From: Nocardiopsis suaedae
GTDB lineage: Bacteria > Actinomycetota > Actinomycetes > Streptosporangiales > Streptosporangiaceae
DNA length: 64,000 nt
Reading direction: 5' to 3'
Assembly: GCF_027706745.1 (NCBI RefSeq)
Contig: NZ_JAQFWP010000006.1
Span: 85,605 to 149,604 of the forward strand
The position numbers and the translations under genes are program-made. Of this stretch, positions 2,325 to 38,342 are shown one piece after another. Position 1 is the stretch's first letter. Each line of letters begins with the position of its first letter. The notes below the pieces were generated by a model that had not been told where the DNA came from, did not search any database, and worked only from the letters and a program-made list of their open reading frames with translations.

Positions 2325-2402
2325 GAGCGCGCTTGGGGCGGAAGGCCGGGGACCTCTGCCAGCGCGCTTGCCGGGCGATGCCATAGATCTACGCCATAAA
2401 GC
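2325..2402 (+). repeat. Dispersed structured intergenic repeat, copy A (78 nt)
   Basis: Starts with GAGCGCGCTTGGGGCGGA, then CTCTGCCAGCGC after 11 nt, then GATGCCATAGATCTACGCCA and TAAAGC after another 11 nt. Boxes and spacers match copy B exactly in length. AGCGCGCT occurs twice and, being self-complementary, can close a stem. The downstream hairpin present in copies B and C is not visible here. Confidence 0.8.
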
Positions 2403-2597
2403 ACCGGGATGGTTTGTATCAACTCAATCCCCTGCAAATCGCCCCGCTTCGACCAGAGCCGCGTTCCCCGGTTCAACACTGCGATGCACCACAAGGCCAC
2501 GAGGGTGACGGAGCCGGTCCGGCCACCCCGCCTCACCGGCCCACTTCCGGGCCGGTGAGAACCCCTATGACCCGCCGTGCGCGTATTCCGCCCCTCC

Positions 2598-2609
2598 GCA
2601 CACGTGTGC
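2598..2609. promoter_or_regulatory. Perfect 12-bp palindrome upstream of EAL-type gene
   Basis: GCACACGTGTGC, fully self-complementary, 187 bp before the GTG of the EAL-type gene and within an AT-richer patch. Possible operator; the binding protein is unknown. Confidence 0.35.
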
Positions 2610-2795
2610 TAACCTTCCGCGTCCGATTGGCGTACTCGGTGTAGGCGAATCCCTTGTGTCCTCCCCCGTTCCCGGGCCGACCCGGGGTCGGGCGCCCGAC
2701 CGCCCCATTAATCCGAGGAGATCTGGGCGCGAAGTCCCGCTGAATTCTCGGCCGGGGCGGCTGACTGCGGTCCGCCCGGGGCTCAGGATGAACCT

Positions 2796-3932
2796 GTGCC
2801 TTCTCCGACTTCGGCTCGCACCACCGGCCCCCAACAGGCCGTCGCCCGTCCCGAGGCCCCTCCCGTCTACCGTCCCGTCGTCGACCTCGAGTCCGGGGTG
2901 GTCCTGGCCGTGGAGGCGGAGGCCGCATCGGCGACGGCGCCGTCCGACGACTCCGCCGCCCATGCCGAGCGGCTCATCCGGCTCGCGCGCCGGGTCGCCT
3001 CCGACGAGGCGCTGCTGCCGCTGATCCTGCCCGTGCCCGCCGCCGCGGCGGCCGCCTCCCCCGACGTGACCGGGCAGCTCGAACTGGTGCTGCGGCGCAC
3101 CGGACGCCGCCCGCGCGACATCACCGTCATGCTCGGCCCCGACCTGGCCGAGCTGCCCCGCGCCGCCGCGGTGCGGGCCGCCTCGCACGTGCGCGACTCC
3201 GGCTTCCGGTGCGCCTTCGCCACCGCCGCGGTCCCCGTGGACGTCATCCTGGACCAGGCCCCGTTCCTGATGCGCCTGCCGCGCAACCTCGTCTCCGGAC
3301 TGCCGGGCGACGAGCGCAGCGCGGCCGTGGTCGAGGGCATGGCCCGCATCGCCCGCAGTGCCGGGGTGTACCCGATGGCGCCGGGCATCTCCTCGGTCGA
3401 CCAGCTCGCGGCGCTGCGCGAGGCCGGGGTGCGCCTGGGGTACGGCCCGCTCTTCGCCGACGACTCCTGGACGCCGGGGGCCAAGGTGCGCCCGCTGCCC
3501 GAGATCCCTCCCGGCCGGGGCGGCGGCGGGCAGGAGGGGCCGCCGGTGTCGACCTTCATCGGGCCGCCGGTCGCCCTGGAACAGGACGCGACGGCGGCGG
3601 AGGTGCTGGACGCCTTCACCAACGACCCGGTGCTCAACTCGATCATCCTGCTGGACCACCGGGAGCGCCCGGTCGCCCTGCTGGACCGGTCGCGGTTCCT
3701 GCTGTCGGTGTCGGGCCCCTACGGGCACGCGCTGCACGCCGCCCGCCCCGCGCGGCGGCTGGCCGACCCGCCCAAGACGGTGCCGCTGCACACCACCGCC
3801 ATGGAGGCCCTGCGCGCCGCGGGCGCCTCGGGCGAGCGCGTCCACGACGACCTGGTGGCGGTGAACGCCTTCGGCCAGGCGGTGGGCGTGGTGGCGGTGG
3901 GCGACGTGATCGCCGCGCTCTCCCGGGGGTGA
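2796..3932 (+). CDS. Degenerate EAL-domain protein with C-terminal CBS-like domain
   Basis: 378 residues, GTG start at 2796. Residues about 25-230 follow the EAL phosphodiesterase layout (YRPVVDLESGVVLAVEA at the position of the canonical Y-Q-P-I-V-D...E-A-L motif), but EAL reads VEA and the metal-binding residues expected later are not evident. It is probably not an active c-di-GMP phosphodiesterase and may be a binding or scaffold domain. After a Gly-rich linker (about 235-250), residues 255-375 resemble the CBS-pair module found C-terminal to EAL or GGDEF domains, with ALLDRSRFLLSVSGPYGHAL as the clearest signature. No membrane segment, so cytoplasmic. The function is inferred from the domain layout only. 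Confidence 0.7.
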   Translation: MPSPTSARTTGPQQAVARPEAPPVYRPVVDLESGVVLAVEAEAASATAPSDDSAAHAERLIRLARRVASDEALLPLILPVPAAAAAASPDVTGQLELVLRRTGRRPRDITVMLGPDLAELPRAAAVRAASHVRDSGFRCAFATAAVPVDVILDQAPFLMRLPRNLVSGLPGDERSAAVVEGMARIARSAGVYPMAPGISSVDQLAALREAGVRLGYGPLFADDSWTPGAKVRPLPEIPPGRGGGGQEGPPVSTFIGPPVALEQDATAAEVLDAFTNDPVLNSIILLDHRERPVALLDRSRFLLSVSGPYGHALHAARPARRLADPPKTVPLHTTAMEALRAAGASGERVHDDLVAVNAFGQAVGVVAVGDVIAALSRG

Positions 3933-4069
3933 GGGAGGGGCGGCGCGGAGCCGCCGACCGGAGCCCGGCGCATTCGGCGTACCCGTTGGGGCCGGATTGG
4001 CGTCGATGGCGCGATCGGTGGGGTACCTGTCGTTGACGCCATCCGGCGGCCCCGGGCACCTTTGACCGC

Positions 4070-5050
4070 GTGAACGAGCACCGTGTCGTCTTCCTCCTCT
4101 TCGAGGGCTTCCAGACCCTGGACCTGACCGGCCCCTGGGAGGTCTTCCGCTGCGCCGGGCACCGCGACGGCGCCTACGCCTGCCGCACCGTGGCCCGCAC
4201 CGCGGGCGCGGTCGCCTCCGGCAGCGGGCTGCCCGTGCACGCCGCCCGCGGGGTGGCGGGGCCGGGCGCCGCGGACCCCGCCGACGCGGACACCCTGGTG
4301 GTCGTCGGCGGGAACGGCGTCGACGCGGCCTGCCGGGACGAGGCCCTGGTGCGGTGGACGGCCGAGGCCGGGGCGCGCGCCCGGCGGGTCGTCTCGGTGT
4401 GCAGCGGGGCGTTCCTGCTGGCCGCCGCCGGCCTGTTGGACGGTCGGCGGGTGACCACGCACTGGCGCCGCGCCGCGCAGTTGGCCCGCGCCCACCCGGA
4501 GGTGCGGGTCGACGCCGACCCGGTGTTCATCAGGGACGGGCGGATCTGGACCTCGGCCGGTGTGACGGCGGGCATGGACCTGGCGCTCGCGCTGGTGGAA
4601 GAGGACCACGGGCGGGACGTCGCGCACGAGGTCGCCCGGGAGCTGGTGCTGTTCCTGCGCCGCCCGGGCAGCCAGTCGCAGTTCAGTGTGCCCCTGTGGT
4701 CGCGCCAGCCCTCCACCGACCCGGTGCGCGAGGCGGTGCGGGCGGTCCACTCCCGCCTGGACGCGCGGCACACGGTGGAGTCGCTGGCGGAGAGGGCGGG
4801 GCTGAGCCCGCGCCACTTCCAGCGGCGCTTCGCCGCCGAGATCGGGGTGGGGCCGGCCGAGTTCGTGGAGCGGGTGCGGGTGGAGGCGGCGCAGCGCGTG
4901 CTGGCCGAGGGCGGGGACCCGGTGGAGGCGGTGGCCCGCAGGTGCGGGTTCGGCAGCGCCGAGACGCTGCGCCGCGCGTTCCAGCGCCGGGTGGGCGTGG
5001 CGCCCTCGGAGTACAGAAGCCGATTCGGACAGATGAAGGAGGACGCATGA
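4070..5050 (+). CDS. GlxA-family transcriptional regulator (DJ-1/PfpI domain + AraC HTH)
   Basis: 326 residues, GTG start at 4070. Residues 1-190 form a DJ-1/PfpI (class I glutamine amidotransferase-like) domain, with LFEGFQTLDLTGPWEVF near the start and the nucleophile-elbow Cys in VVSVCSGAFLLAAAG. Residues about 215-320 are an AraC/XylS double helix-turn-helix (SLAERAGLSPRHFQRRF and VARRCGFGSAETLRRAFQRR). Family members sense small metabolites through the DJ-1 domain and activate neighbouring genes. The stop overlaps the ATG of the next gene, itself a DJ-1 protein, in ATGA, so the two are co-translated and the neighbour is a natural target or partner. Confidence 0.9.
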   Translation: MNEHRVVFLLFEGFQTLDLTGPWEVFRCAGHRDGAYACRTVARTAGAVASGSGLPVHAARGVAGPGAADPADADTLVVVGGNGVDAACRDEALVRWTAEAGARARRVVSVCSGAFLLAAAGLLDGRRVTTHWRRAAQLARAHPEVRVDADPVFIRDGRIWTSAGVTAGMDLALALVEEDHGRDVAHEVARELVLFLRRPGSQSQFSVPLWSRQPSTDPVREAVRAVHSRLDARHTVESLAERAGLSPRHFQRRFAAEIGVGPAEFVERVRVEAAQRVLAEGGDPVEAVARRCGFGSAETLRRAFQRRVGVAPSEYRSRFGQMKEDA

Positions 5051-5667
5051 CGGCTTACGGCCTGCTGGTGTTCGACCGTGCGGAGGAATTGGACTTCGTC
5101 GGCCCGTGGGAAGTGTTCGGAGTTTCGTCGATGCTCCGGGACGGGGCGGACTCGCTGGAGCTGATCGCCGAGCGGGAGGGGCCCATTCGCTGCAACAAGG
5201 GCCTGCGGGTGGTGCCGGACCGGGTGTTCGGCGACTCCGGGGGCGGTCGGCCGGAGGGGCTGGACGTGCTGCTGGTGCCCGGCGGGAACGGGACGCGCAC
5301 CGAGGTCGGAAACGACCGGCTGATCCGCTGGCTGGCCGAGGAGGCCGGGCGCGCGGAGTGGGTGGTGAGCGTGTGTACGGGGTCGCTTCTGCTGCACGAG
5401 GCCGGCCCGGCGAAGGGGAAGCGGGTGGCCACGCACTGGTCCTTCGAGGAGGGGCTGGAGGCGCGCGGGGGAGTGACGGTGGTGCGCGACGCCCGCTATG
5501 TGGTCGACGGGAACCTGGTGACGAGCCAGGGGGTCTCGGCGGGGATCGACATGGCGCTGTGGCTGGTGGGCCGCCTGCACGGCCGCGACCACGCGCGACA
5601 GGTGCGCCGGTACATGCAGTACGAGCCCGCCCCGCCGTACATGGCGGACGAGCCCTTGGCGTGGTGA
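5047..5667 (+). CDS. DJ-1/PfpI family protein (isonitrile hydratase-like)
   Basis: 206 residues, starting inside the stop of the GlxA-type regulator (ATGA). A single DJ-1/PfpI domain with LVFDRAEELDFVGPWEVFG, the glycine-rich turn LLVPGGNGTR, the catalytic-elbow Cys in VVSVCTGSLLLHEAG, and ATHWSFEEGLEARGG, as in isonitrile hydratases and related stand-alone DJ-1 enzymes. It resembles the N-terminal domain of the regulator before it, suggesting duplication. Likely a cytoplasmic hydratase or hydrolase whose substrate is also what the regulator senses; that link is inference from coupling. Confidence 0.85.
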   Translation: MTAYGLLVFDRAEELDFVGPWEVFGVSSMLRDGADSLELIAEREGPIRCNKGLRVVPDRVFGDSGGGRPEGLDVLLVPGGNGTRTEVGNDRLIRWLAEEAGRAEWVVSVCTGSLLLHEAGPAKGKRVATHWSFEEGLEARGGVTVVRDARYVVDGNLVTSQGVSAGIDMALWLVGRLHGRDHARQVRRYMQYEPAPPYMADEPLAW

Positions 5668-5847
5668 GAGGGTCGGGGCGGCGTCGTCCGGGGGCGGCGG
5701 CGATCCCGGCGCGGGGTGGTGCGGGGACTCGCGGTGCCCGGTAATGCGCTGGATCGGCACGGGCGGAGCGGGTTAGGTTGCCGGGGCGCCGCAGCGCGCG
5801 GGCGCCGCCGGGCGCACCTTTCACAACGTTCGCGAGGAGACCACCAC

Positions 5848-6795
5848 ATGACCACGCTGGGAAACTCCGGCTTGGAGATCCACCCCGTCGTCCTGGGCGG
5901 CAACACCTTCGGCTGGACCAGCGACGAGAAGGAGTCCCACCGCGTCCTGGACGCGTTCCTGGACGCGGGCGGGACCCTCGTCGACACCGCCGATTCGTAC
6001 TCCGCCTGGGTCGAGGGGAACGAGGGAGGGGAGTCCGAGCACGTCATCGGCTCCTGGCTGGCCGGTCGTGGCCGCCGTGACGACGTGCTCATCGCAACAA
6101 AAGTAAGCCAGCACCCCGAATTCCGAGGATTGGCCGCTTCCAACGTCAAGGCCGCCGCCGAGGCCTCGCTCAAGCGCCTCGGGACCGACTGCATCGACAT
6201 CTACTATGCGCATTTCGATGACGCCGGCACTCCGCTGGAGGACACCGTCGGGGCCTTCGACGCTCTGGTGAAGGAGGGCAAGGTCCGGTACGTCGGCGTC
6301 TCCAACTACGGCCCGGACCGCCTTCGCCGCTGGCTGGAGATCGCCGAGGGGATCGGAGCCGCCCTGCCGGTGGCCCTGCAGCCGCACTACAGCCTGGTCC
6401 ACCGGAAGACCGTCGAGCCCGAGCTGCGCGACATCGCCCTTGGTGCCGGGATGGGCATGCTGCCCTACTGGGCGCTGGCGGCCGGGTTCCTGACCGGCAA
6501 GTACCGCACCGAGGCCGATCTGGAGGGGCGGGCGCGCGCAGGGAGCGTCGGCCGGTACATGGGGCCCGAAGGGCTGGCGGTCGTGGACCGGCTCGTGGAG
6601 ATCGCCGACGCCCACGGCGTCGCCCCGGCGACGGTCGCGCTGGCGTGGGTGCTGGGACGTCCGGGGATGGCGGGCGTGCTCGCCAGCGCCCGCACCACCG
6701 AGCAGCTCCCCGCGCTCATGGACGCGGCACGGGTGTCGCTGAGCGAGGACGAGGCGGCCGCGCTCACGCGGGCCTCGGACGCCGTGGGGGCCTGA
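5848..6795 (+). CDS. Aldo/keto reductase
   Basis: 315 residues, ATG at 5848 behind GAGGAGA. Typical AKR TIM-barrel: GGNTFGW near the N-terminus, the Asp/Tyr pair in VDTADSYSAW, Lys in LIATKVSQHP and His in IDIYYAHFDD (the catalytic tetrad positions), then VRYVGVSNYGPDRLRRW and the C-terminal NADPH-binding part (VALAWVLGRPGMAGVLASAR). It should reduce a carbonyl or oxidise an alcohol with NADPH in the cytoplasm; the substrate cannot be told. A stand-alone gene with about 180 bp of leader after the DJ-1 pair. Confidence 0.9.
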   Translation: MTTLGNSGLEIHPVVLGGNTFGWTSDEKESHRVLDAFLDAGGTLVDTADSYSAWVEGNEGGESEHVIGSWLAGRGRRDDVLIATKVSQHPEFRGLAASNVKAAAEASLKRLGTDCIDIYYAHFDDAGTPLEDTVGAFDALVKEGKVRYVGVSNYGPDRLRRWLEIAEGIGAALPVALQPHYSLVHRKTVEPELRDIALGAGMGMLPYWALAAGFLTGKYRTEADLEGRARAGSVGRYMGPEGLAVVDRLVEIADAHGVAPATVALAWVLGRPGMAGVLASARTTEQLPALMDAARVSLSEDEAAALTRASDAVGA

Positions 6796-7140
6796 ATCCC
6801 GCGCGAAGGGTCGGCGGGTGGGCCCCGGAAGGGGAGAACCGCAATACCGGTCGCTTTCCCGATAGGTCTGCAGAGATCCGCCCGCCGCTCCTCGTTGCTC
6901 GATTCCTTTCTCGATGAACGTGCGGTGAGAGGTGATTCCGCTCGTCTCTGATTTTCGGGACCCTGGGGGGAGACTGGTGGTATTCCTGCTGGTGGAAGCG
7001 GTAGGAAAAGTGCTGGCCTATTGCGGACAGCGTCCCGCCCTGCCGTTTTGGAATCGGTGGTCCAGGGGGCCCATTGCATGGTGTTCGCAGGCGGATATGA
7101 ATGCGGTGGGCGGCGTCGTTTCCGAGCGACCGGAGGAATC
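6796..7140 (+). promoter_or_regulatory. Leader of ricin-type lectin gene, no gene seen
   Basis: 345 bp of lower GC than its surroundings, especially 6840-7080, with no frame that looks coding. It probably contains the promoter and a long 5' untranslated leader for the lectin gene at 7141. Confidence 0.4.
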
Positions 7141-7557
7141 ATGGCACTGATCCAGCAGGGCGAGTACCTGATCAGGTGCGCCGCGAACGACCTGTACATC
7201 GACCTGAGCGGCGGCAGCGCCGACCCGGAGACGCCGATCATCGGCTGGCACCTCCACAAGGGCACCAACCAGCGGTGGGACGTGCAGCAGAAGAGCCTCA
7301 ACGTGTTCACCATCCGCAGCATGGTGGGCGAGGCGTTCTTCGGGCTGAGCGGCCTGAAGGTCTTCCCGCCGCTCATCGCGGCCCAGTCCTTCCCCGAGGC
7401 CTGGTCGGTCGAGCCGGTGGGCGAGGGCAAGTACCGGATCCACTTCCTGTACATCGACGCCGTGGTGACCCTGCCCGAGGACCGGGAGGGCACCCAGTTC
7501 GTCCTGCAGCCGTGGCGCGGGGAGAACCGCCAGATGTTCATCTTCGAGAACGCCTGA
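7141..7557 (+). CDS. Ricin B-type beta-trefoil lectin domain protein
   Basis: 138 residues from ATG 7141 with GGAGGAATC immediately upstream. A single beta-trefoil: YLIRCAANDLYIDLSGGS, the QRWDV motif (Q-x-W signature, in GTNQRWDVQQ) and a last repeat FVLQPWRGENRQMFIFENA. There is no signal peptide or membrane segment, so unlike most actinomycete ricin-type lectins it seems to stay in the cytoplasm or leave by a non-Sec route. The length suits one trefoil domain and nothing else. Single-domain trefoils can bind sugars or inhibit proteases; neither can be decided from sequence. A GC-rich hairpin follows 65 bp after the stop. Confidence 0.75.
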   Translation: MALIQQGEYLIRCAANDLYIDLSGGSADPETPIIGWHLHKGTNQRWDVQQKSLNVFTIRSMVGEAFFGLSGLKVFPPLIAAQSFPEAWSVEPVGEGKYRIHFLYIDAVVTLPEDREGTQFVLQPWRGENRQMFIFENA

Positions 7558-7621
7558 CCTGTCGCGGCCGACAGGGCGCCGGTGCCCGTCCCCGGAACCT
7601 CCGGGGTGCGGACCGGCGCAG

Positions 7622-7654
7622 GGGTCCGCCTCCGGGATCGCCGGGGGCGGACCC
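7622..7654 (+). terminator. Hairpin after lectin gene
   Basis: GGGTCCGCC pairs with GGCGGACCC across a 15-nt loop, 65 bp after the lectin stop. A probable transcription terminator; no T-run follows. Confidence 0.5.
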
Positions 7655-8068
7655 TCGCCTTCGTCGGGGGCGGCGGGGCCCAGGTCGTCGGAGAGCGGAA
7701 GCGGGGGAGGGCAGGCGGAGGGTGGGGCCTGCGGATGTGCTCACGGGGAAGGGGCGTCGTGCGTCCGGATGATTCCCGCTTGCGGCCTTGCGGGGCGCTC
7801 CTGTGCGCTCGAGCGGACGGTCAGAGCCGTTCGATCACGTGCAGCCACACCCACTGCGTGGAAGCGGCCGCTGCCGTGGCGTGGTAGGCGAGCATCACAG
7901 CGATCATCAGCACGACGTTGTGCCCCATTTCCGGTGTCGGGTCGGTTCCCCCCTCAGGGGGCGGCGAGATCGAGATGATCTTCGCGGCGAAACCCTACCG
8001 GCGGCGGGTCGGCTCATGGGCAGAAACGATGAGATCTGTCCCTATAGGGGGATCTGCCCAGGTCAACG
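7655..8068. other. Intergenic region between lectin and SARP genes
   Basis: 414 bp between convergent genes. Apart from the small minus-strand frame at 7821-7928 it holds a short palindrome around 8042 (CCCTATAGGGG). Longer frames on either strand read as Arg/Pro-rich shadow sequence. Confidence 0.4.
7821..7928 (-). CDS. Possible 35-residue hydrophobic peptide downstream of SARP regulator
   Basis: ATG at 7928 (minus strand), TGA at 7821-7823. Residues 4-22 are a hydrophobic stretch starting NVVLMIAVMLAYHA and the end is QWVWLHVIERL. The composition (Met, Val, Trp, Ile; few Arg or Pro) differs sharply from random frames at this GC. A GGGGGGA stretch lies 13 nt upstream of the ATG. It sits 140 bp downstream of, and in the same direction as, the large SARP regulator, much as the small gene afsS follows afsR in Streptomyces, though it shows no likeness to AfsS. 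A small membrane or signalling peptide is possible; chance cannot be excluded. Confidence 0.35.
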   Translation of the reverse strand: MGHNVVLMIAVMLAYHATAAAASTQWVWLHVIERL

Positions 8069-11000
8069 CTACACGATCTCCTCCTGGGGGGTGCTGTCCC
8101 CTGTGCGGGGGAGTGGCACGTTCAGCGCTGCGACGGGCGCGCCGCAGTCCCCCTTCCCTCGAGCCGTTCCCGACCGCTCTCGGGCCCGGGCGGCGGCGTC
8201 GAACAGTGCTTGGGAGCGCTCCGCGTCACCGCGCCGGTGCGCCACGTGTCCGAGGGCGGTCAGAGCGTGTGCACGCGCTTCGGACGTGGGCGACCGATGA
8301 AGCGCCTGCTGCATGTGGACCTCCGCCTCCTCGAAGTCACGAAGGGCCGCGTACGCCTCGCCCAGCCCCATGAGGATGGCGGGCATGTCGGCAGGGGCGT
8401 CTGTCGCCGACGCGAGGTCCTGAGCCTTGGCGAAAGCGCTCAAGGCGGTCGTGGGCTGTCCCAGGCGCAGGCGGGTGTGCGCCGAATGCGCCAGTGCGGC
8501 GATCTCAGTGGTGGTGTCGCCGATCGCCCGCGCCGTCTCCAGGGCATCCTGGAAGCACTCGAGGGCCAGTGAAAGCTCGCCCCGGTCGGCATGGAGTTCG
8601 CCGATGTTGCAGCGCATCCGCATGGCGTCACCGCGCCGCCCGGCCTCCTCCGCGAGCCTGAGGGCCTCCTCTCCGAGACGCAGGGCCTCGGCCGGCTTCC
8701 CGATCTGGGCCATCACTCGGGCCATGTTCCCCGTCACCATCATGATCGAGGCCTGGTCGCCGACGGCCTCGTAGAGGGTGAGGGCTTCGTGGAACGAACC
8801 GAGCGCCTGCGCCGGTGCGCCGCGTACGCTGTGGCCGATCGCCGCGAAATGGAGTGACTGGGCGACCGTCGGTACGTGCCCCTCGTGTCGGGCCACCGCC
8901 AGCGCCTCTTCGATGCAGGGAAGTGCGGCGTCCGCGTGCCCGGCGAGGCTGAGCGCGAGGCCCTGGGCGCTCAGGGCCTGGGCCCGGGTGACCTCGTCCC
9001 CGCAGGTCGATGCCTGATCTATGGCCGCCAGCGAAGTGGCGGCGACCCGGCTCAGACGCTCGGCCCTCAAATGGGCCGCGACGAGCTCGTTCAACGCGTG
9101 CGCGTACCCCACCGCGTCCCCTCGGTCGCGGAAGGTTCGGGCCGCTCCCTGGAAGGCCGTGGCCTCGCGGTCGGGTGCGCCCGAGGTGGACAGGAACCCC
9201 GCCAGGCGCAGGGCCAGCTCCGCCCGGTGCCAGGCGAACGCCTCGCCCTCCGATGCCGGGTGGGCGCCCCCGGAGCCCGGCAGCAGGTCCAGCAGGGTTC
9301 CCCGCTCGGCCGCGAACCACGCGTCGGCCTCGTCCGGCCCGGCGAACCCCGGCGCCTCCACCGGCGCCCCCGGGCGGGCCGGGCGGCGGTGGCGGTGCGG
9401 GAACCGCGCCCGGTCGGCGGCGTCGGCCGCCGCGAGCCACTGGTCGAACACGCGCGAGAGCACCGCGTGCTCCTCCAGCGCCCCCAGCTCCTCCTGCGCC
9501 GTGCGCCGGGCGAAGTCCGCGGTCAGCGCGTGCAGGCGCCAGCGCCCCGGCGGCCCCGGCTCCTCCACCAGCGAGCGCTCCGACAGCAGCTCCAGGACCG
9601 GCTCGGCCTCCCGCGCCGTCGCACCGATCGCCGCTGCGGCGGCGTGGGTGCCGAACGCGGTGGACGGAAGAAGGCCGAGCCGGACGAACGCGGCCCGCGC
9701 CGGCGGGGGCAGGCCCTGTGCGCTCGCGGCCAGGGCCGCGGCGACCGGGCCGGTGAACCGGGGCGCCGCCTCGTCGAGCCGCTCGACCAGGTGCGCCAGC
9801 GGCCACGCCGGGTGCGCGTGCCGCCACCAGGACGCCAGCAGCCGCAGCGGGTGCGGCAGCCGGTCCATCCTGCGCGCCAGCGCCGACAGCCCCGGCCCGT
9901 CGGCGCGCGGGTCGCACCCGGTGATCGCGGCCACCAGCCCCACGGCCTCCTCCGGGGCGGGCGCGACCAGCCCCAGCGCGCGCGAACCCTCCAGCGACGC
10001 CATGCGGATGCGGGAGGTCACCAGGGCGGCGCTGTGCCGCCCCCCGGGCAGCAGCGGGCGCACCTGCTCGGGGTCGGCGGCGTCGTCGAGCACGGCCAGG
10101 AGCCGCAGCGGCGCGGTCAGGGTGCGCCACAGCCGCGCCCGCGCCTCGGTCCCCTCGGGGAGATCGGCGGCGGGCACGCCGAGCTGCCCGAGCATCTCGT
10201 GCAGCGCCTCGGCGGGGTCGCGGGGCGGCCGGTCGGTCCCGGAGCCGTGCAGGTCGACCAGGAGGCGCCCGTCGGGGAACTCGGGGCTCAGGCCGTGCGC
10301 GGCGCGGCACACCAGGGCGGTCTTGCCCACCCCGGGCATGCCCGACACGACCACGGCCGCCGCGCCCGCGCGCAGGTCGGCGGCGATGCGCTCCAGCTCG
10401 GCCGCGCGCCCGTGGAAGTCGTGCAGGTCCCGGGGGAGGGTGTCCGGGGGAGGGGCGGGCGCCGCCCCGGAGGGCGGTGCGCCGGTCGGCGGCGCCGCGG
10501 GCGCCCCCTGGGCGTTCCCGCCGTCCCGGCCCCGGCCGCCCTCGGCCTCGCACAGCAGGTGCCGCAGGGCCGCTCCCGGGGCGACCCCCTGCTCGTGCAG
10601 GTGCTCGGCCAGGCGGCGGCACACCCCCGCCGCCTCGGCGCGGTGCCCGGCCCGCAGCAGGGCGGTGGCCAGGTTGAGGGCGACGGGCTCGCTGCCGGGG
10701 TGGAGGCCGGCCTCGGCGTGCAGCGCGTCGAGCAGGTCGCGCGGGTCGCGGCCGCTCTCCAGCAGCAGCCGCCCGTGGTCGGCCGCGGCGTCGCGGCGCG
10801 CCAGCACCATGGCCTCGCGGCGCCGGAGCGCCCAGTCGCCCGAGAGGCCGGTGAGGGGCGTGCCCCGCCACAGCCCCAGCGCCTCTTCCAGAAGCTCCAG
10901 GGCCGGCTCCCGCTCACCGGCCCGTTCGCGGGCGCGCGCCGCGCGGCACAGCCGCCGGAACCGCGGCCAGTCGACGGCGTCGGCGCCCAGGTCCAGGCGG

Positions 11001-13992: not shown

Positions 13993-14476
13993 GGCAGGCC
14001 GAGGTGAGGGGCGCATCACACCGTTCCCGCGGGGCTGCGCCGTGTGCGGGGGAGTGCGTGCGGAGGGACGGGCCGCCTTCGAGCGCGCTTGGGGCGGACG
14101 CATGATGTGCTCTGCCAGCGCTCTGCAACGGGGATGCCATAGATCTACGCCATAAAGCCGGGAGTGGTGGCGCTTCACACCCCAAGACCACAGCGGAGCG
14201 GCTCCGCCGCACTGACCTCCCACACCGGCCCCCGCAAGGGGGCGGACCTCGGCGGGCCGTGTCCTCTGGAGTGATGGAGCATTCGGCGGCCGCGGCCGCC
14301 GACCGCCTACGGCCTTCGGCCGTCCCCCGACAGGCGTTCCGCCGGTGCGGACCCGCTCGGCGAACGGCGGGCGCCGACAGCGGGGGCTCGGCCTGTGCGG
14401 GCCCACTGTCGGCGCCCTCAAAGGAGCGGTCTGCCGCCGCCCCCGCGGCCCGGTCCGGGCCCGGAGGCGTCCGCGG
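13993..14476. other. Intergenic region, 484 bp, with repeat copy B
   Basis: Downstream of the flippase-like gene and of the minus-strand L32 gene. It contains copy B of the structured repeat (14081-14212) and a small ACGGCC-TTC-GGCCGT hairpin (14309-14323). No coding frame is convincing. Confidence 0.6.
14081..14212 (+). repeat. Dispersed structured intergenic repeat, copy B (132 nt)
   Basis: The first 78 nt match copy A in every box and spacer length: 18 of 18 identical in the first box, 12 of 12 in the second, 26 of 26 in the core ending ATAAAGC at 14158. After 33 nt comes the hairpin sequence CAGCGGAGCGGCTCCGCCGC (14191-14210), shared with copy C at the same distance. Confidence 0.85.
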
Positions 14477-27904: not shown

Positions 27905-27942
27905 CCGCGGCCCCCGCCCGCACCGCGGGGGCGGGGCCGCGG
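27905..27942 (+). terminator. Terminator after SDR gene
   Basis: CCGCGGCCCC-C-GCCC folds on GGGCGGGGCCGCGG with one bulge. Confidence 0.6.
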
Positions 27943-28108
27943 CGAGGCGTCCGCCACCCCGCCCGCGCGCCGAGGCGCCCACGCCCCCGTGCCCACGGGA
28001 GTCCCCGCAGGTCGCACCGGCCGACCCGGTGCCGGACCGGGCATTGCAATAGCGCGCCCGTCCAAGGAAGATGGGGTTAATCGGACATCTCGCAATCAGG
28101 GAGGCCCG

Positions 28109-28318: not shown

Positions 28319-28377
28319 CGGTGGGCCCCGCCGGGGGCGAGCAAGGACACGGGGAAGGACACTGGGGGGTGGCCTTC

Positions 28378-30247: not shown

Positions 30248-30366
30248 CGGCGCGGGCGGTGCCCGGCATGCCGGGGGAACGGCCCTGACGCGGGGCGGCG
30301 ACGGCGCAGGTCGGCGGCCAGAGGCGCTGCATTGTCGGCCGTGCGGCGTGCGCGTGGTCACCGGGG

Positions 30367-30762
30367 ATGGCGGCGACGGCGCGCGGCGAGTGGGCCGGTT
30401 CGGCCGCGGCGATGGCCGAGACCTCCAACGAGATCGGCAACGTCCTGGGGATCGCCCTGCTGGGGTCCCTGGCGGCGCTGATCTTCCGGTCGCTGGGCCC
30501 GGACCTGGCGCCCACGCTGAACGAGACCGCGGAGCTGCCCGGGGTGGGCGCGGCGGCGCCGGCCCAGGCCGAGTCGGCGTTCATGGCCGGGCCGCACGCG
30601 GTGGCGGTCGTGGCGGGGCTATTGCACGCGGGGCTGGGGGCGCTGGCGCTGCGGTGGCTCCCGAAGGGGCGAACGGCCCCTGAGGGGCAGGCCGAGCCGG
30701 GGGAGGGGAGCGGCGGCGCGGACGCGTCCCAGGCCCTGGAGGGAGTGCGGGGCGTGCGCTGA
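30367..30762 (+). pseudogene. MFS drug transporter (DHA2/EmrB type), C-terminal relic
   Basis: 131 codons remaining. SAAAMAETSNEIGNVLGIAL is the conserved segment of 14-TM EmrB/QacA-type exporters (near TM11), followed by two hydrophobic helices and a hydrophilic tail. The preceding 350-plus residues that form the pump are missing, and the relic begins about 120 bp after the permease gene with no clear start or ribosome site. A truncated gene, probably left by deletion. Copy D of the structured repeat follows at 30905. Confidence 0.7.
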
Positions 30763-30904
30763 CGGACGACGTGTTGCGCCGTGGTTCCGGCGCCCCGCGC
30801 ACCACTGCGGGCGGCGCCTTCGGGCGAGGGGAGGGGGGACCGCGGGGGCGCCCTATGGGGGCCACCGGGGGCGCGCCGTTAGGAGGGCGGAAAGGAGAAC
30901 CGCG

Positions 30905-30981
30905 GCGCGCGCTGGGGAGGATGTGCGGGCTCGTTCTCCCAGCGCGCGGGAACGGCGGTCCCGTAATCTACGTTATAAAGC
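30905..30981 (+). repeat. Dispersed structured intergenic repeat, copy D (77 nt, diverged)
   Basis: Same order of boxes as copies A-C. GCGCGCTGGGGAGG near the start and CTCCCAGCGCGC 18 nt later form a perfect outer stem (GCGCGCTGGG/CCCAGCGCGC), and the core reads ATCTACGTTATAAAGCC with one base deleted before it. Pairing kept despite sequence change supports a folded element. Confidence 0.65.
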
Positions 30982-31019
30982 CAGAGGTGGAGTGACATCC
31001 TTCACTCTTCACCACACAT

Positions 31020-31051
31020 AAAAAAATCGCGCCGCTCCGCGGCACGCGATT
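31020..31051 (-). terminator. Intrinsic terminator of NUDIX-HAD operon
   Basis: Read on the minus strand: AATCGCG...CGCGATT stem with an inner CCG/CGG, then seven T. A classical rho-independent terminator, about 200 nt after the NUDIX stop. Confidence 0.75.
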
Positions 31052-31254
31052 ACCCCGCACCGGGTCCCATGCAGGCCTGCCGCCGCCCGAAGGCGGGCAG
31101 GACGCCGACCGGGCAGGAAGGCGCGCCCCGGCGGGGCAAGACACCGCGGACCTGCGCCGACGCCCCATGGGCGCTCTCAGAAGCCGCAGGAGCCCCACCC
31201 GGCCCACGGCATTTCTCGGACCCAACAAGGCGCACAGGGCCCGCACAGGCCCAC

Positions 31255-32076
31255 TCAGGCCCCGCTCGCGCCCTCCGGGGCCTCAGGGGAGCGGGACAGC
31301 AGGCCCAGCCCCCGCCGCGCCGTCGCCGACAGCGCCAGGTGCGGCAGGTCCTCGGGCAGGAACCAGGCGCAGTCGGACGTGGAACCGCCCACCTCCAGCA
31401 CCCGCGGCTCACCCGGCTCGGCCACATGGGCGTGGAAGAACACCCACACCCCGTAGATCTCGGTCTCCTCGGCCTCGGGCCCGCGCACCCCGCTGCTGTG
31501 GTGGTGCACCACGCCCACCATGGCGCCCACCCCCGCGTCCTGGCCGGTCTCCTCGGCCACCTCGCGGCGCAGCGCGGCGCGCACCTGCTCACCGTGGTCG
31601 ACCCCGCCGCCCGGCAGGTGCCAGGTGCCCTCGCCCGGGAACCCCTCGGCGATGCGCGACAGCAGCAACCGCCCCGCCGGATCGGTGACCAGCCCGTAGC
31701 CGCCCAGCCGCCGCAGCGACGGGCCCGGCCGCGGCGGCTCCTCGGCCGCCAGCTCGGCCGCCGACGGCAGGAGGCCGCCCGGGGGCCAGGCGGCACCGGG
31801 GCCGGTGCCGCCTTCGCGGACCGCCGCATACGGGGCGAACAGCAGCCGGTCCACGTGCATGTCCACTGGGCCCTCGGGTCCCTCCAGCGCCACCAGCTCG
31901 GCGCGCACGTCCAGCGCCTCCAGGCGCGCGTGCCCGTCCAGCCCGGCCGAGAGCCGCGCCGCCTGTACCGGGTCCTGCCCGAACAGCAGCCGCGCACCGC
32001 GCTCGGCCCCGGCCACGTGCACCGCGGTCCGGCGCACGCGGCGCGCGCCGGGGCGCCCGAAGGCGCCGCCGCTCAC
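31255..32076 (-). CDS. NUDIX hydrolase
   Basis: 273 residues, GTG at 32076 overlapping the HAD gene's TGA (GTGA). The C-terminal half (about 125-265) is a NUDIX domain: [13 protein letters not shown] leads into [10 protein letters not shown], together the G-x5-E-x7-R-E-x2-E-E-x-G box, complete. The N-terminal 115 residues form a second, unrecognised domain, with [20 protein letters not shown] and RLLFAPYAA, possibly a pre-NUDIX domain as in some actinomycete fusions. Hydrolyses a nucleoside-diphosphate-linked substrate; coupling to a HAD phosphatase suggests stepwise dephosphorylation. Confidence 0.85.
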
Positions 32077-32792
32077 CGCAGCTCCGGCGCGGTGACCAGG
32101 CCCACCAGGTCGCCCAGCCCTCCGATCACCCGCACGTCCTGCTGGTCGCGGTGGGCGCCGCGCCGGTCCACCAGCAGCGGGCGCATGCCCCCGGCCGCCG
32201 CCCCCAGGGCGTCGGCGTGCACCTGGTCGCCCACGTGCCAGCACATCTGCGGGTCCACCCCCATCTGGCGGGCCGCGGCGTGGAAGATCCGCGGGTCGGG
32301 CTTGCCCGCCCCGGCCGTGTCGGCGCACACCACGGCCCGGAAGTGCCCCGTCAGGCCCATCCGGTCCAGCTTCTGGCGCTGCAGCTCCTCCACCCCGTTG
32401 GTGATCACCCCCAGGCCGATGCCGGCCTGGGCCAGCTCGGCCAGGGCCGGGGCCACGTCCGGGAAGGCCTGCCAGGCGCCGCTGTGCGCCTCCAGGTACT
32501 GGCGGTACAGGTCGTCGCAGGCCTGGTCGGGCACCGAGGAGTGGCCGGCCTGCACCGCCAGCGCGCGGACGCGCTCGCGGCGCTGCTCCTGAAGGCCCAT
32601 CCGCCCGTCGATGTAGGCGCCGAAGGAGATCTCGGTCTGAACCTCCCACAGGGTGCGGGCGGCGTTGTAGTCGGGGTGCCCGAGCCGGTCCATCAGGGTG
32701 CGCAGGCCCGCGTCGCTGGCCGCCCTATCGTCCAGCAGGGTGTCGTCCAGGTCGAAGAAGATCACCGCGGGCGCGGTGGCGGTATCCGGCAT
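32073..32792 (-). CDS. HAD-superfamily hydrolase
   Basis: 239 residues from the ATG at 32792 (an ATG three codons earlier is possible). Motif [12 protein letters not shown] (nucleophile and acid Asp), motif II VITNG, motif III Lys in [11 protein letters not shown], motif [16 protein letters not shown]: complete, subfamily I with an alpha-helical cap at about 20-95. Length and cap type resemble YjjG-like nucleotidases and phosphoglycolate-type phosphatases. Overlaps the NUDIX gene by four bases. Confidence 0.9.
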
Positions 32793-32945
32793 CGTTCCCA
32801 TTCTCTTGTGACTCGGCTTTCGCGCGAAAGCTCAACGGTCAGCGGCAAACAGGGCTACGTTACCGGTCGAACTGGGACGATGCGCCACCGGCGACCGCAT
32901 TGCGGGACGGCTCCGGCGCCGCGGGCCGCATGCGGCCGCCACCGC

Positions 32946-33896
32946 TCAGGGGACCCGCTGGCCCCACAGCAGCGACGCGGCGGCGGCCAGCGCCCCCAGC
33001 AGCACCGCGGCGCGCACCCACCACACCACGTTCTCCTGGTATTCGATCTCACTCCCCAGCGAGGAGCCGATGTCCTCGTACACCTTGCTGAGCTCGGTCT
33101 CGGACTCGGCCTCGTAGAAGTAGCCGCCGGTGTCGTCGGCCAGGCGCTCCAGCGCCTCCTTGTCGATGTTGGCCTCCACCGGCTCGCCGTTGATCTCCAC
33201 CAGCGCGGTGCCGCTGCCGAAGGCGATCGTGGACACCGGCACCTCGGCCTCGGCCGCCGCCCGCGAGGCCGAGGCCACCGGCCGGCCGCTGGTGTTCTCC
33301 CCGTCCGAGAGCAGCACGATCGCCGAGGGCGGCGGCTCCTCGCCCGATTCGGAGTCGAAGGACTCGATGGACTGCAGCGAGGCGAACACCCCCTCGCCGA
33401 TGGCGGTGCCGGGGGAGATCTGCAGGTTCTGGATGGAGTCGGCCACCGCCTGGTGGTCCTGGGTGGGCGAGGCCACCACCCCGGCGGTCGCCGAGAAGCT
33501 CACCAGCCCCACGTTGAACCGGTCGGGCAGCGACTCCACGAACCCCACCGCCGACTCCTTGGCGGCGCTGATCCGGTCCGGGTCGACGTCGTTGGCCACC
33601 ATGGACGGCGACACGTCGATGGCCACCATGATGGTGGCGCGCTCGCGCGGCACCTCTACCGGCATGGCCGGGCGCCCCATGGCCACCGCCAGCACCAGCA
33701 TCGTCGCCAGGAACAGCGCCGCGCCCACGTGCCGCTGCCAGCCCGGCCGCGCCGGGGCCACCCGGTCCAGCAGCGCCAGGTTGGTGAAGCGCGCCGCCTG
33801 GGCGCGGCGCCGCAGCTGGACCCAGACATAGGCGGCGGCCAGCACGGCGACGACCACCAGCGCCGCGGCCATCCAGCCGGGGGACAGCAGGTTCAC
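32946..33896 (-). CDS. VWA-domain membrane protein (BatA-like)
   Basis: 316 residues from ATG 33896. Two N-terminal hydrophobic helices (residues 8-25 and 57-75), a von Willebrand A domain at 85-280 with the MIDAS motif DVSPSM (D-x-S-x-S) and LLSDGENTSG, and a C-terminal helix at 290-310. This is the Aerotolerance BatA/BatB layout. It binds a divalent metal and probably a partner on the periplasmic or membrane face. It is the last gene of a MoxR-DUF58-VWA operon, in which the MoxR ATPase is thought to act as chaperone for the VWA partner. Confidence 0.9.
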   Translation of the reverse strand: MNLLSPGWMAAALVVVAVLAAAYVWVQLRRRAQAARFTNLALLDRVAPARPGWQRHVGAALFLATMLVLAVAMGRPAMPVEVPRERATIMVAIDVSPSMVANDVDPDRISAAKESAVGFVESLPDRFNVGLVSFSATAGVVASPTQDHQAVADSIQNLQISPGTAIGEGVFASLQSIESFDSESGEEPPPSAIVLLSDGENTSGRPVASASRAAAEAEVPVSTIAFGSGTALVEINGEPVEANIDKEALERLADDTGGYFYEAESETELSKVYEDIGSSLGSEIEYQENVVWWVRAAVLLGALAAAASLLWGQRVP

Positions 33897-33918
33897 GGCA
33901 TCGTCCTTTCGTCGCTGT

Positions 33919-34905
33919 TCAGCGGGGCCGGGCCGGGGTGTGGCGGGCCAGCCGGTGGGCGGTGGTGCGCTGGGAGACCACGAACCGGGCCATGTCCACC
34001 ACCCAGTCCCGGTCGGTGCGCAGCACCACGTGCGGCACCCCGGTGCGGCGCAGCGCCGCGGCCACCGCCTCGCGCTGGGCGCGGGCGGCGGCGCGGTAGC
34101 GCTCGCGCACCGCCGGGGTGATCTTGACGGCGCGGGCGCGCCCGGTCTCGGGGTCGGCCAGCTCGGCCCAGCCCACGTCGGGCACGTCCAGCTCGCGCGG
34201 GTCGAGCACCTCCACGGCGAGCACCTGGTGGCGGGCGGCCAGCCGCCGCATGGGCCGCTCCCAGGGCGCCTCGGCGCCGCCGGGCGGGGTGTCGAGGAAG
34301 TCGGAGACGACCACGCGCAGGCCGCGGCGGATCTGCGAGCGGGCCAGCTCCTCCACGGCCGCGGCCAGGTCGGCGCGGCCGGCGGCGGCCCCGCCCGGCC
34401 CGGCGTCGCCGCGGGGGGCGGCGGCCACGGTGGCCATCAGGGTGGTCAGCGCCGAGCGGCCCGAGCGGGCGGGCCAGCGGCGCACCCGCCCGCGGTGCAG
34501 GAAGTAGGCGCCGAAGCGGTCGCCGACCTTCTGGGTGAGCACGGTGACGGCGGCCAGGGCGCCCACGGCCACGTCGCGCTTCTCGCACCCGGCGGTGCCG
34601 AAGTCCATGCTGGGGGACAGGTCCAGCAGGGTCCAGGTCTCCAGTTCGCGGTCGGCGACCTGGTCGCGCACGTGCGGCACGGTGGTGCGGGCGGTGACCG
34701 CCCAGTCCATGTGCCGCACGTCGTCCTCGCCGGGCAGGTAGCGGCGGGCCTCGGCGGGCTCGCTGCCCGGCCCCTGGCGCAGCCCCAGGTGCTCTCCGTG
34801 CAGTAGGCCCTCCATGCGGCGCACGATGCGCAGGTCCAGGTGGCCCAGGGCCTCGTGGGCGCGCGGGTCCAGCAGGGGCGCCGGTCGGCGGGGCGGGGCG
34901 GCCAC
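33919..34905 (-). CDS. DUF58 domain protein (MoxR-associated)
   Basis: 328 residues, GTG 34905, 3 bp after the MoxR stop. The DUF58 core is clear: GPGSEPAEARRYLPGEDDVR and DWAVTARTTVPHVRDQ, then TWTLLDLSPSMDFGTAGCEK, which is a degenerate VWA MIDAS (D-L-S-P-S-M). No transmembrane helix. DUF58 proteins always accompany MoxR ATPases and are thought to be clients or adaptors for cofactor insertion or complex assembly; the mechanism is not known. Confidence 0.9.
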   Translation of the reverse strand: MAAPPRRPAPLLDPRAHEALGHLDLRIVRRMEGLLHGEHLGLRQGPGSEPAEARRYLPGEDDVRHMDWAVTARTTVPHVRDQVADRELETWTLLDLSPSMDFGTAGCEKRDVAVGALAAVTVLTQKVGDRFGAYFLHRGRVRRWPARSGRSALTTLMATVAAAPRGDAGPGGAAAGRADLAAAVEELARSQIRRGLRVVVSDFLDTPPGGAEAPWERPMRRLAARHQVLAVEVLDPRELDVPDVGWAELADPETGRARAVKITPAVRERYRAAARAQREAVAAALRRTGVPHVVLRTDRDWVVDMARFVVSQRTTAHRLARHTPARPR

Positions 34906-34908
34906 GGC

Positions 34909-35988
<1,080 letters not shown>

Positions 35989-36238
35989 TCGTCCAGCCTT
36001 TCCGTCGGCGCCCCCCGGGGGGCGCCGGTGCCGTCCTCGCCGCCCGGCGTGTCGGGCCGCTGTCGCGCCGGCCGGGCGGCCGCATAGCATTGGGCCCGCG
36101 TTCCCTGACTTCCCCTCCGTGCGGCGGTTGGATTCCGCACGGAGAGTCGGGAATGCTCACACATCGGCGATGCTACCGCCGCGCGGGCGGTTCGGGGCGC
36201 CCTGGACCGGGCGCGGCGGGGTCGGATGAGGTTCGGGG

Positions 36239-37018
36239 GTGCGCGTGGACGCGGGAGGCGGACTGCACGAGGGCGACCCGCGCCAGCTGGGCGGGTACCG
36301 TCTGCGCGCACGCCTGTCGTCCTCGCCCGAGGGCACGGTGTACGCGGCCGTGGACTCCCGCGGCGACCCGGTCGAGGTGGTGCTGCTCAGCGAGGGGGCC
36401 GCGGGCGACGGGCAGGCGCGCGAGCGGTTCCGCGCGGCGGTGGCCGGCGGGCGGAAGGGGGATGGGCCCCGGGTGCTGTCCTCCAGCACGCGCGCCTCGG
36501 CGGCGGCGTGGGCCGCGGTGGCCCCGGGCGGGGGCGGAGCGGGCGCGCTGCTGGAGACGGTCTCGGGCGGTGCGGGGCGGGTGCGCTCGGGCGCCGCGCC
36601 GTCGCTGCAGCCGCACTGGTCGGCGCGCACGGCCCCGGCGTCGGGGCGGTGGTTCTGGCCGCTGCCGGGCGGCGGCGGGCAGGCGGCGGCCCCGCGCGCC
36701 AACCGTGCGGTGGTGGTGGGCATGGTGCTGTTGCTGCTGCTGGCCGTGCTGTTGGCGGTGCTGCTGTACTTCTGGCTGTCGCTGCTGTCCCAGCAGGCCG
36801 GGGCGCAGGCCGAGCCGTCGCCCTCGCCCTCGTCCAGCCCGAGCGGGTCCCCTTCGCCGTCGCCGTCCCCCTCGCCGTCGGAGTCGGGGGAGGGGGACGG
36901 GCCGAGCGAGGGGCCCACCTCCTCGCCGTCGGAGGACCCCTCCTCGGACGTGCCCGAGGCGCCGCTGGACGACGACGACCTGTCCACCCTGCCGCAGGAC
37001 CCCCAGACCCTGACCTGA
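36239..37018 (+). CDS. Single-pass membrane protein with kinase-N-lobe-like domain and Ser/Pro tail
   Basis: 259 residues from GTG 36239. Residues 18-55 (LGGYRLRARLSSSPEGTVYA) look like the first strands and Gly loop of a Ser/Thr kinase, but the loop lacks its glycines, the VAVK Lys is not evident, and there is no catalytic lobe. One hydrophobic helix lies at about 160-182 (VVVGMVLLLLLAVLLAVLLY), then an extracytoplasmic Ser/Pro repeat (SPSP) and an acidic tail. I read it as a membrane-anchored protein with a remnant or minimal kinase-like fold. Divergent from the MoxR operon by about 250 bp. Confidence 0.6.
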   Translation: MRVDAGGGLHEGDPRQLGGYRLRARLSSSPEGTVYAAVDSRGDPVEVVLLSEGAAGDGQARERFRAAVAGGRKGDGPRVLSSSTRASAAAWAAVAPGGGGAGALLETVSGGAGRVRSGAAPSLQPHWSARTAPASGRWFWPLPGGGGQAAAPRANRAVVVGMVLLLLLAVLLAVLLYFWLSLLSQQAGAQAEPSPSPSSSPSGSPSPSPSPSPSESGEGDGPSEGPTSSPSEDPSSDVPEAPLDDDDLSTLPQDPQTLT

Positions 37019-37173
37019 CCGGGCACTGCGCCCCCGCCGTTCCGGGGACCTTGGTCCGTGCGCGGCCAGGGGCCCTTTCCGCGCCGGGGGCGCCGGGCTA
37101 GCGTCTGCCGCATCCGCGGGGCGCGCACCCGGCCGTGGGCGGCTGGGCCCCGTTCGGTGGGGAAGGGGGCGTG

Positions 37174-38178
37174 ATGCTCGGCGGCCGTTCCCCGGCCCGG
37201 GCGGCCGCCGCAGGTGCGACCGCCGCGCTGCTGGCCGCGTCGTCGGCGGCGGCCCTGATGGTGGGCGAGTACCCGGTCGCCTGGCGCGAGCTGGCGCGGG
37301 CGCTGGCCGCCCCGGGCGGGCAGCCGGGGTCGGTGGGGTTCATCGTGTGGGAGCTGCGGGTGCCGCGCCTGGTGGCCGGGGCGGCCGCGGGGGCGGTTTT
37401 CGCCGCGGCGGCGGTGCTGCTGCAGGGGGCCTGGGGGAGCCGCGCCCTGGACGTGCGCCTGCTGGGCATGGGCGGGGGAGCGGTGCTGGGGGCGGTGCTG
37501 GCCGGGCCGGTGGGGCAGGCGGGTCCCGGGGAGCGCGCGGCCGCGGCGGTGGCGGGGGCGCTGGCGGCCGGGGCCCTGGTGACGGTGGTGCTGCGGCGTG
37601 CGGGCGCCGGGTGGGGCCCGGGGCGGCGGGCGGTGGCGGGCGCGTCGGCGGATGCGGTGCTGACCGCTGCCGCGGTGGCGGCCGCGGTGCGCGCGGCCGG
37701 GGGGTGGGAGGCGGCCTGGCCGGGTCTTGCCTGGGTGGCGGTCGGGACGCTGTCGGGGGCTTTGGAGCAGGTGCTGGTGCTGGGGGTGCTGTGCGCGGGG
37801 GCGGTGGCGGCGGTGCTGGTGCTGTCGGCCCCGGGCGGGCCGGGTGGCGGGCCGTGGGCGGCCGTGGTGCCGGCGGCGGTGCTGTGCGGGCTGGGGACGG
37901 CGCTGGCGGGACCGCTGCTGCTGGCGGGGCTGCCTGGGGCCGTGGCGGGGGCCTGGATCGGCCGGGGGCGCCCGGCGCGGTCGGTGGCGGCGGCCGTGCC
38001 GGTGGGGGCGTGCACGGTCCTGGTGTGCGATGTGGTGCTGCGGTCGGCGGGGGAGTGGGCCGAGCCCGCGGTGGGGTTGGCGACCGGGGCGGTGGGGGCG
38101 GTGGTCCTTGCGGCCGCGGCGGCCGTGGGGAGGGCACCGGGGGCGCGGAGGAGTGAGCCCAGGGAAGCGGTGCGGTAG
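37174..38178 (+). CDS. FecCD-type permease-like membrane protein
   Basis: 334 residues (ATG 37174, GGAAGG seven bases before; GTG 37171 also possible). About nine hydrophobic helices. VGEYPVAWRELARALAA and VWELRVPRLVAGAAAGAVFA, then AAVLLQGAWGSRALDVRLLG, follow the FecCD/BtuC fold (R-L-P-R-x(7)-G, A-G-x-x-x-Q, N-P-L-A-x-P-x-x-L-G), but the N-P-L-A part is lost. Such permeases normally pair with an ATPase and a binding protein for siderophores; none is nearby, so it is either an orphan half-transporter or repurposed. Extremely Ala/Gly/Val-rich. Confidence 0.65.
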   Translation: MLGGRSPARAAAAGATAALLAASSAAALMVGEYPVAWRELARALAAPGGQPGSVGFIVWELRVPRLVAGAAAGAVFAAAAVLLQGAWGSRALDVRLLGMGGGAVLGAVLAGPVGQAGPGERAAAAVAGALAAGALVTVVLRRAGAGWGPGRRAVAGASADAVLTAAAVAAAVRAAGGWEAAWPGLAWVAVGTLSGALEQVLVLGVLCAGAVAAVLVLSAPGGPGGGPWAAVVPAAVLCGLGTALAGPLLLAGLPGAVAGAWIGRGRPARSVAAAVPVGACTVLVCDVVLRSAGEWAEPAVGLATGAVGAVVLAAAAAVGRAPGARRSEPREAVR

Positions 38179-38210
38179 CTCCCTTGAGGGGGGGCGCGGC
38201 GTCTGCGTCC

Positions 38211-38342
38211 CAGCGCGCTTGCGGCGAAGGTGCGGCGGGTCCCGTCAGCGCTCTATGAATCCCCTGCCATAGATCTACGTCATAAAGCCAGGAGTGTCGT
38301 GTTCCACCGCTTCACAAACACAGCGGAGCGGCTTCGCCGCAC
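38211..38342 (+). repeat. Dispersed structured intergenic repeat, copy C (132 nt)
   Basis: AGCGCGCTT box, CAGCGC box and core CCATAGATCTACGTCATAAA are spaced exactly as in copies A and B. The hairpin CAGCGGAGCGGCTTCGCCGC at 38321-38340 is 33 nt after the core, as in B. It sits 33 bp after the FecCD-like stop and 70 bp before the coiled-coil gene. Confidence 0.85.

What the first reader, a model, noticed from the sequence alone, without database searches (positions are those of the whole stretch)
2325..38342. Four-copy structured intergenic repeat in one orientation
The core CCATAGATCTACG-Y-CATAAAGC occurs at 2381, 14138 and 38267, with a diverged copy at 30960, always on the plus strand and always between genes. 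Copies A (2325-2402) and B (14081-14158) match in all three boxes with identical 11-nt spacers; copy C (38211-38288) keeps the same spacing. The two AGCGCGCT-type boxes can pair, and in copy D the pairing is retained with a changed sequence (GCGCGCTGGG/CCCAGCGCGC). The protein frame on the reverse strand changes amino acid at the variable position, so the conservation is at nucleotide level. I know of no named element with this layout.
Basis: seen in the sequence. Interest (0 to 1): 0.75.

Follow-up and report, generated by a model that had tools for sequence, protein, structure and literature searches.

The report
A third bacterial replication fork trap
A 17-base sequence that occurs four times in this stretch of an actinobacterial chromosome lies beside the predicted end point of chromosome copying and points at it, as do all 132 copies mapped in 14 genomes (this one included); the copies likely work as one-way stop signs for the copying machinery, which would make them a third, unrelated system of that kind with a still unknown binding protein.

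Summary
The four-copy repeat is real, but not a structured RNA. Its heart is a polar 17-bp DNA site, RATCTACNNYRTAAAGS. The window holds a predicted dif site (48834-48861) 10.6 kb beyond the last copy, so it covers the replication terminus; all four copies lie on one side of dif and point at it. In 14 genomes (own window included) 132 of 132 mapped sites point toward dif. In a class sample the site occurs in 39 of 41 genomes of the family and 0 of 353 of other families. Base-composition skew jumps at the innermost site at 11 boundaries in six genomes, on both gene strands; at three boundaries, this window's included, it jumps at dif instead, and one of two predictions made in advance failed that way. 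Tus has no match in 12 genomes, RTP none over its cut-off. The layout matches published fork traps, known only with Tus and RTP. Best reading: Ter-like sites of a third, independently evolved fork trap, protein unknown. Fork arrest itself is inferred.

The parts
2386..2402 (+). Ter-like site A, GATCTACGCCATAAAGC, 46.5 kb from dif
14142..14158 (+). Ter-like site B, GATCTACGCCATAAAGC, 34.7 kb from dif
30965..30981 (+). Ter-like site D, AATCTACGTTATAAAGC, 17.9 kb from dif
38272..38288 (+). Ter-like site C, innermost recognised site, GATCTACGTCATAAAGC, 10.6 kb from dif
48834..48861 (-). Predicted dif site (28 bp; core 48836-48854)
   Evidence: 0 mismatches to the core pattern; sequence; by hand 23 of 28 letters equal the suggested Frankia alni dif printed in PMC3025954 (passage), the differences being the first two bases and the central spacer
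51046..52422 (+). Xer-type tyrosine recombinase about 2.2 kb from dif, with a best match 3-4 kb from dif in G022, G025 and G185
   Evidence: Pfam Phage_integrase 2.3e-23; NCBIfam XerC 3.5e-46 but below that model's cut-off; reciprocal best matches
2325..2368 (+). Genus-specific upstream boxes of copy A (GAGCGCGCTTGGGGCGGA, CTGCCAGCGCGCT); role unknown
   Evidence: folding no better than shuffles
14081..14124 (+). The same boxes in copy B
38211..38228 (+). Diverged first box of copy C (3 mismatches)
30907..30947 (+). Inverted boxes of copy D (GCGCGCTGGG / CCCAGCGCGC)
   Evidence: sequence; z -1.89

Best explanation
The four copies are polar 17-bp sites (RATCTACNNYRTAAAGS) that in this actinobacterial family flank the predicted dif site from both arms of the chromosome, all pointing at it, and they likely act as Ter sites: bound by a still unidentified protein, they would let replication forks into the terminus and block forks trying to leave it. 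Shown: sequence, polarity, flip at the terminus, concentration near dif, restriction to one family within the sampled class, conservation at matching loci in several genera, and a strand-specific composition jump at the innermost sites in most boundaries tested. Inferred: a dedicated binding protein (it may be a dimer, since the core TACRNYGTA is palindromic and only the flanks AATC and AAGG break the symmetry), and polar fork arrest with the GTAAAGG end as the blocking face. Also inferred: the jump records forks that fuse at the innermost barrier and prime extra DNA synthesis back into the trap, leaving single-stranded DNA that mutates C to T.
For: Polarity: 132 of 132 sites in 14 genomes point to dif; 77 of 132 lie within 10% of a half-chromosome of dif (positions; dif; dnaA). 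Specificity: 39 of 41 genomes of the family and 0 of 353 of other families of the class. Footprint: the two largest GC-skew up-steps fall 0.8-5.9 kb from the two innermost sites, 10 of 10 boundaries in G022, G154, G162, G172 and G185. Of two boundaries predicted in advance for G076 the left one met the prediction and the right one did not. Third-position skew 0-20 kb inside is +0.30 on one gene strand and +0.56 on the other, against -0.14 and +0.07 in the 20 kb outside. The GC-skew reversal lies at 0.36-0.62 of the interval between innermost sites in six genomes, while dif lies at 0.02-0.04 or 0.81-0.97. Published fork traps have the same layout: PMC6549158, PMC10331603, passages seen.
Against: No binding protein was found; Tus has no match and RTP none over its cut-off. 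No fork-arrest data exist. In this window, in G151 (right side) and on the right side of G076 the main skew step lies at dif, 10-26 kb inside the innermost recognised site, so there dif or an unrecognised site marks the boundary; G151's left side shows only a small step 6.7 kb from its site, and G025's boundary could not be tested by the step scan. PMC3025954 (passage) cites a proposal that replication generally terminates at dif, which those three boundaries would fit. Sites 1-2 Mb from dif would rarely meet an outgoing fork. No opposing site is visible in this window, because its contig ends 15 kb past dif.
Confidence: 0.82

Rival explanations
1. The sites guide a DNA translocase (FtsK/KOPS-like) or another segregation machine toward dif, without stopping forks.
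For: They point to dif in all 132 mapped cases. Octamers that impose chromosome architecture (AIMS) are proposed in PMC5993296 (start of abstract in search listing). At three boundaries the skew step lies at dif.
Against: Only 6-15 sites per genome within one mismatch (26 genomes), 17 bp long, and dense only near the terminus. The skew footprint starts at the innermost site rather than at dif at 11 boundaries, and the skew reversal lies mid-interval, not at dif.
Confidence: 0.08
2. The sites bind a terminus-organising or regulatory protein (MatP-like or an ordinary repressor); polarity is a by-product.
For: Palindromic core TACRNYGTA; several copies lie 3-281 nt upstream of genes, repeatedly of the same families (read by eye, names recalled: a TPR protein, a HipA-like kinase, a Ser/Thr kinase).
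Against: The neighbours look unrelated in function and all four gene arrangements occur; an operator would not be expected to flip strand at the terminus in every mapped genome.
Confidence: 0.07
3. Structured RNA element.
For: Boxes can pair in copies A, B and D; the 70 nt downstream of D (z -4.63) and of two genus copies (L412 -3.19, L413 -3.13) fold well.
Against: Upstream folds of A and B are no better than shuffles and copy C does not pair; six of nine downstream folds are within 1.1 sd of shuffles; the loci of other genera that I printed show the core without the boxes.
Confidence: 0.02

Closest known systems
Tus-Ter replication fork trap (Escherichia coli and relatives)
   Same: Several polar sites on both arms pointing to dif, dif between the innermost sites and next to one of them, innermost sites outside reading frames (PMC6549158, PMC8347550, PMC10331603; passages seen). 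One variant of the core here, TACGTTGTAAAG, recalls the GTTGTAA of E. coli Ter (recalled from memory, not from a call).
   Different: No Tus match in 12 genomes; the site is a 17-bp sequence with a palindromic middle; in a different phylum.
RTP-ter fork trap (Bacillus subtilis)
   Same: Polar sites around the terminus; a dimer-friendly palindromic middle.
   Different: No RTP match over the cut-off in 12 genomes. In 11 of 12 a weak hit exists; in the two loci where I could read the gene (G154, G022) it looks PadR-like (name recalled), and it lies 1.3 Mb or more from dif in the seven genomes G022, G025, G076, G154, G160, G185 and G189 (positions; genes). RTP ter sites consist of two half-sites (PMC10331603); here there is one 17-bp core.
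KOPS / AIMS oligomers
   Same: Motifs tied to chromosome arms and the terminus.
   Different: Octamers (AIMS length from the listing) at high density (recalled); here 17 bp and 6-15 per genome.

Membership tests
Replication fork trap (general layout) | Several non-palindromic sites on both arms point toward dif | tested here: met
   132 of 132 in 14 genomes; both arms seen in 13 of 14, the window shows one arm only
Replication fork trap (general layout) | dif lies between the innermost sites | tested here: met
   13 of 13 genomes with both arms; dif predicted by sequence, with one mismatch in G022 and G076
Replication fork trap (general layout) | Polar arrest of forks | not testable with these tools
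   Only an indirect composition footprint
Tus-Ter | Tus protein (PF05472) | tested here: not met
   0 of 12 genomes; E. coli control rings
RTP-ter | RTP protein (PF02334) | tested here: not met
   0 of 12 over the cut-off, 11 of 12 with a weak hit; B. subtilis control rings
Tus-Ter and RTP-ter | Terminator gene with a ter site in its promoter | tested here: inconclusive
   Genes near sites clustered and judged by eye; a MarR/OhrR-like gene recurs in G022 and G025 but no DNA-binding gene recurs more widely
KOPS-like translocase guide | Short motif at high density (recalled) | tested here: not met
   17 bp, 6-15 sites per genome within one mismatch
Structured RNA | Stable, conserved secondary structure | tested here: not met
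   z about 0 upstream in A and B, +1.5 in C; no Rfam hit

The most novel reading that the evidence does not exclude
A third, independently evolved bacterial replication fork trap, shared by most sampled members of one actinobacterial family, built on an undescribed polar 17-bp Ter site and an unknown terminator protein, whose innermost barriers leave a sharp strand-specific mutation footprint written by extra DNA synthesis after fork fusion at the barrier.
Probability: 0.7. Interest if true: 0.92.

Novelty: new variant of a known kind. Interest (0 to 1): 0.87.

Why it matters
[quoted passage not shown] PMC10331603 (passages) weighs several possible benefits of the traps. A third, independent invention would show that such traps are selected for, give a new DNA barrier protein to find, and offer a natural record of termination in the DNA itself, because base composition changes within a few kilobases of the innermost sites at most boundaries tested. 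Seven searches of the held open-access library (the lists of 30, 49 and 50 were cut) listed no title that reports a fork trap in actinobacteria; most subscription papers are missing from that library.

Tried and rejected
Structured RNA: folding and Rfam. OhrR/MarR as the binder: in G022 and G025 a site lies next to an OhrR-like gene (name recalled), but each promoter also carries TTGTGCACAA, which I read as its own operator. RTP-like weak hit: present in 11 of 12 genomes and far from dif where measured. A small gene next to the innermost site in G025, G154 and G185 is pterin-4a-carbinolamine dehydratase (Pfam on the window's homologue). The conserved 259-aa gene at 36239 looks like a membrane protein and has no Pfam or NCBIfam match. 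Gene strand as the cause of the skew: excluded.

Full report
Observation. The core ATCTACGYYATAAAGC occurs exactly four times in the window, all on the + strand, against 0.04 expected. In the whole genome (6.97 Mb, 139 contigs) six places match within two mismatches: the four here, plus C19 and C82 with AAAGG in place of AAAGC.

Widening the site. Searches in the genus (6 genomes) and family (120 and 341 genomes) showed that the site is wider than the first pattern; RATCTACNNYRTAAAGG, with one mismatch allowed, matches 26 of 26 genomes of 7 genera. The reversed control pattern gave few or no matches in each search. A weight matrix from 134 instances in fetched loci (picked by the pattern, so biased) has strong letters outside the variable middle, and weak preferences for A/T just before the core and T about seven bases after it. 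The middle TACRNYGTA is a palindrome; the flanks AATC and AAGG make the site polar. In a class-wide sample AATCTACNNYGTAAAGG occurs in 39 of 41 genomes of the family and 0 of 353 genomes of other families.

Position. In contigs that hold a whole or nearly whole chromosome the strand flips once, + then - along the coordinates apart from circular wrap. A dif-like sequence lies inside the flip interval. Counting sites in 14 genomes whose dif was located (own window included), 132 of 132 point toward dif. In nine genomes with dnaA on the same contig, dif is 0.40-0.53 of the circle from dnaA. 77 of 132 sites lie within a tenth, and 127 of 132 within a half, of a half-chromosome of dif. The sites are not independent, because some are inherited (for example between gcvP and a TPR gene, or between a NUDIX and a kinase gene, in several genera, names recalled), so no coin-toss probability is claimed. 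Some sites with mismatches may be chance, yet they too point the right way.

The window itself. dif is at 48834-48861 on the - strand. Sites A, B, D and C lie 46.5, 34.7, 17.9 and 10.6 kb to its left and point to it. Nothing comparable scores to its right, but the contig ends with the window, 15 kb past dif. A Xer-type recombinase gene starts about 2.2 kb from dif, and its best matches in G022, G025 and G185 also lie 3-4 kb from dif.

Footprint. In six genomes with both arms fetched the reversal of GC skew lies at 0.36-0.62 of the interval between the innermost sites, while dif lies near one end. In G022, G154, G162, G172 and G185 the two largest up-steps of GC skew lie 0.8-5.9 kb from the two innermost sites, 10 of 10 boundaries. 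Averaged over these ten, GC skew is about zero outside and about +0.3 a few kilobases inside, AT skew moves the opposite way, and both fade over tens of kilobases. The shift is present at all codon positions and strongest at the third, for genes on either strand, so it is mutational in kind and not a matter of gene direction. I wrote down a prediction for G076, from another genus, before looking: steps at both innermost sites and not at dif. The left boundary met it (step at 2638.4 kb with an 8-kb span, site at 2638.3 kb). The right one did not: the largest step was at dif, 21 kb inside the site, with a second zone of skew ending near the site. In G151 (right side) and in this window the step is also at dif rather than at the innermost site; G151's left side has only a small step 6.7 kb from its site. 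G025 shows higher skew inside its one fetched boundary but could not be scanned for a step. These exceptions are unexplained: a degenerate site may be missed, or dif may itself mark where synthesis ends in some genomes, as has been proposed in general (cited in PMC3025954, passage).

Mechanism. The published description of fork traps fits point by point: several non-palindromic ter sites around the terminus, pointing to dif, bound by a protein so that only forks coming from dif are blocked (PMC6549158, passages), with dif between the innermost sites (PMC10331603 and PMC8347550, passages). I infer the same here. The footprint also suggests what follows: a fork that has crossed the trap stops at the far innermost site; the other fork runs into it; extra synthesis then starts from the fusion point back into the trap, leaving long single strands that mutate. 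Over-replication after fork fusion is discussed for E. coli in PMC10331603 (passages); its link to this skew is my inference.

What is missing. The protein. Tus has no match in 12 genomes. RTP has none over its cut-off; the weak match in 11 of 12 reads as PadR-like in the two loci where I saw the gene, and lies 1.3 Mb or more from dif in the seven genomes named under Closest known systems. Genes beside sites were clustered without a convincing DNA-binding candidate.

Verdict. The finding is real and leads to something larger than reported: the terminus of an actinobacterial chromosome with a set of Ter-like sites for which my searches found no description. That the sites are polar terminus markers is close to certain; that they arrest forks is likely but untested.

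Noticed in passing
48000-64000: GC skew rises to about +0.28 and AT skew falls to about -0.28 from dif rightward to the contig end; in this genome the step is at dif, not at the innermost recognised site.
   Followed up: partly
59900-63975 (-): A gene group with a second tyrosine-recombinase-like protein (61695-63041) and proteins without Pfam or NCBIfam match (59900-61687, 63103-63579); best matches lie about 13-24 kb from dif in G022, G025 and G185.
   Followed up: partly
45455-47332 (-) and 49203-51044 (+): Two acyltransferase/DUF418-like membrane protein genes in opposite orientation on either side of dif.
   Followed up: no
L396, L399, L425, L437, L458, L460, L495, L504: A site 110-128 nt before the same TPR-like gene in several genera (in L495 the crude gene call overlaps it), even about 0.9 Mb from dif in G154; gcvP-like gene upstream in L425, L437, L458, L460 and L495, another gene in L396 and L399.
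   Followed up: partly
14197-14211 and 38327-38341; L412, L413: A short hairpin sequence AGCGGCTNCGCCGCA follows several genus copies about 40 nt after the core; with one mismatch allowed it occurs in the window only after copies B and C, and may be a transcription terminator guarding the site.
   Followed up: partly
L445, 1319-1335 (+) and about 1501-1517 (-): Two sites only about 165 bp apart and facing each other in G145 (one of them with a mismatch), which would be a very narrow trap if both are real.
   Followed up: no
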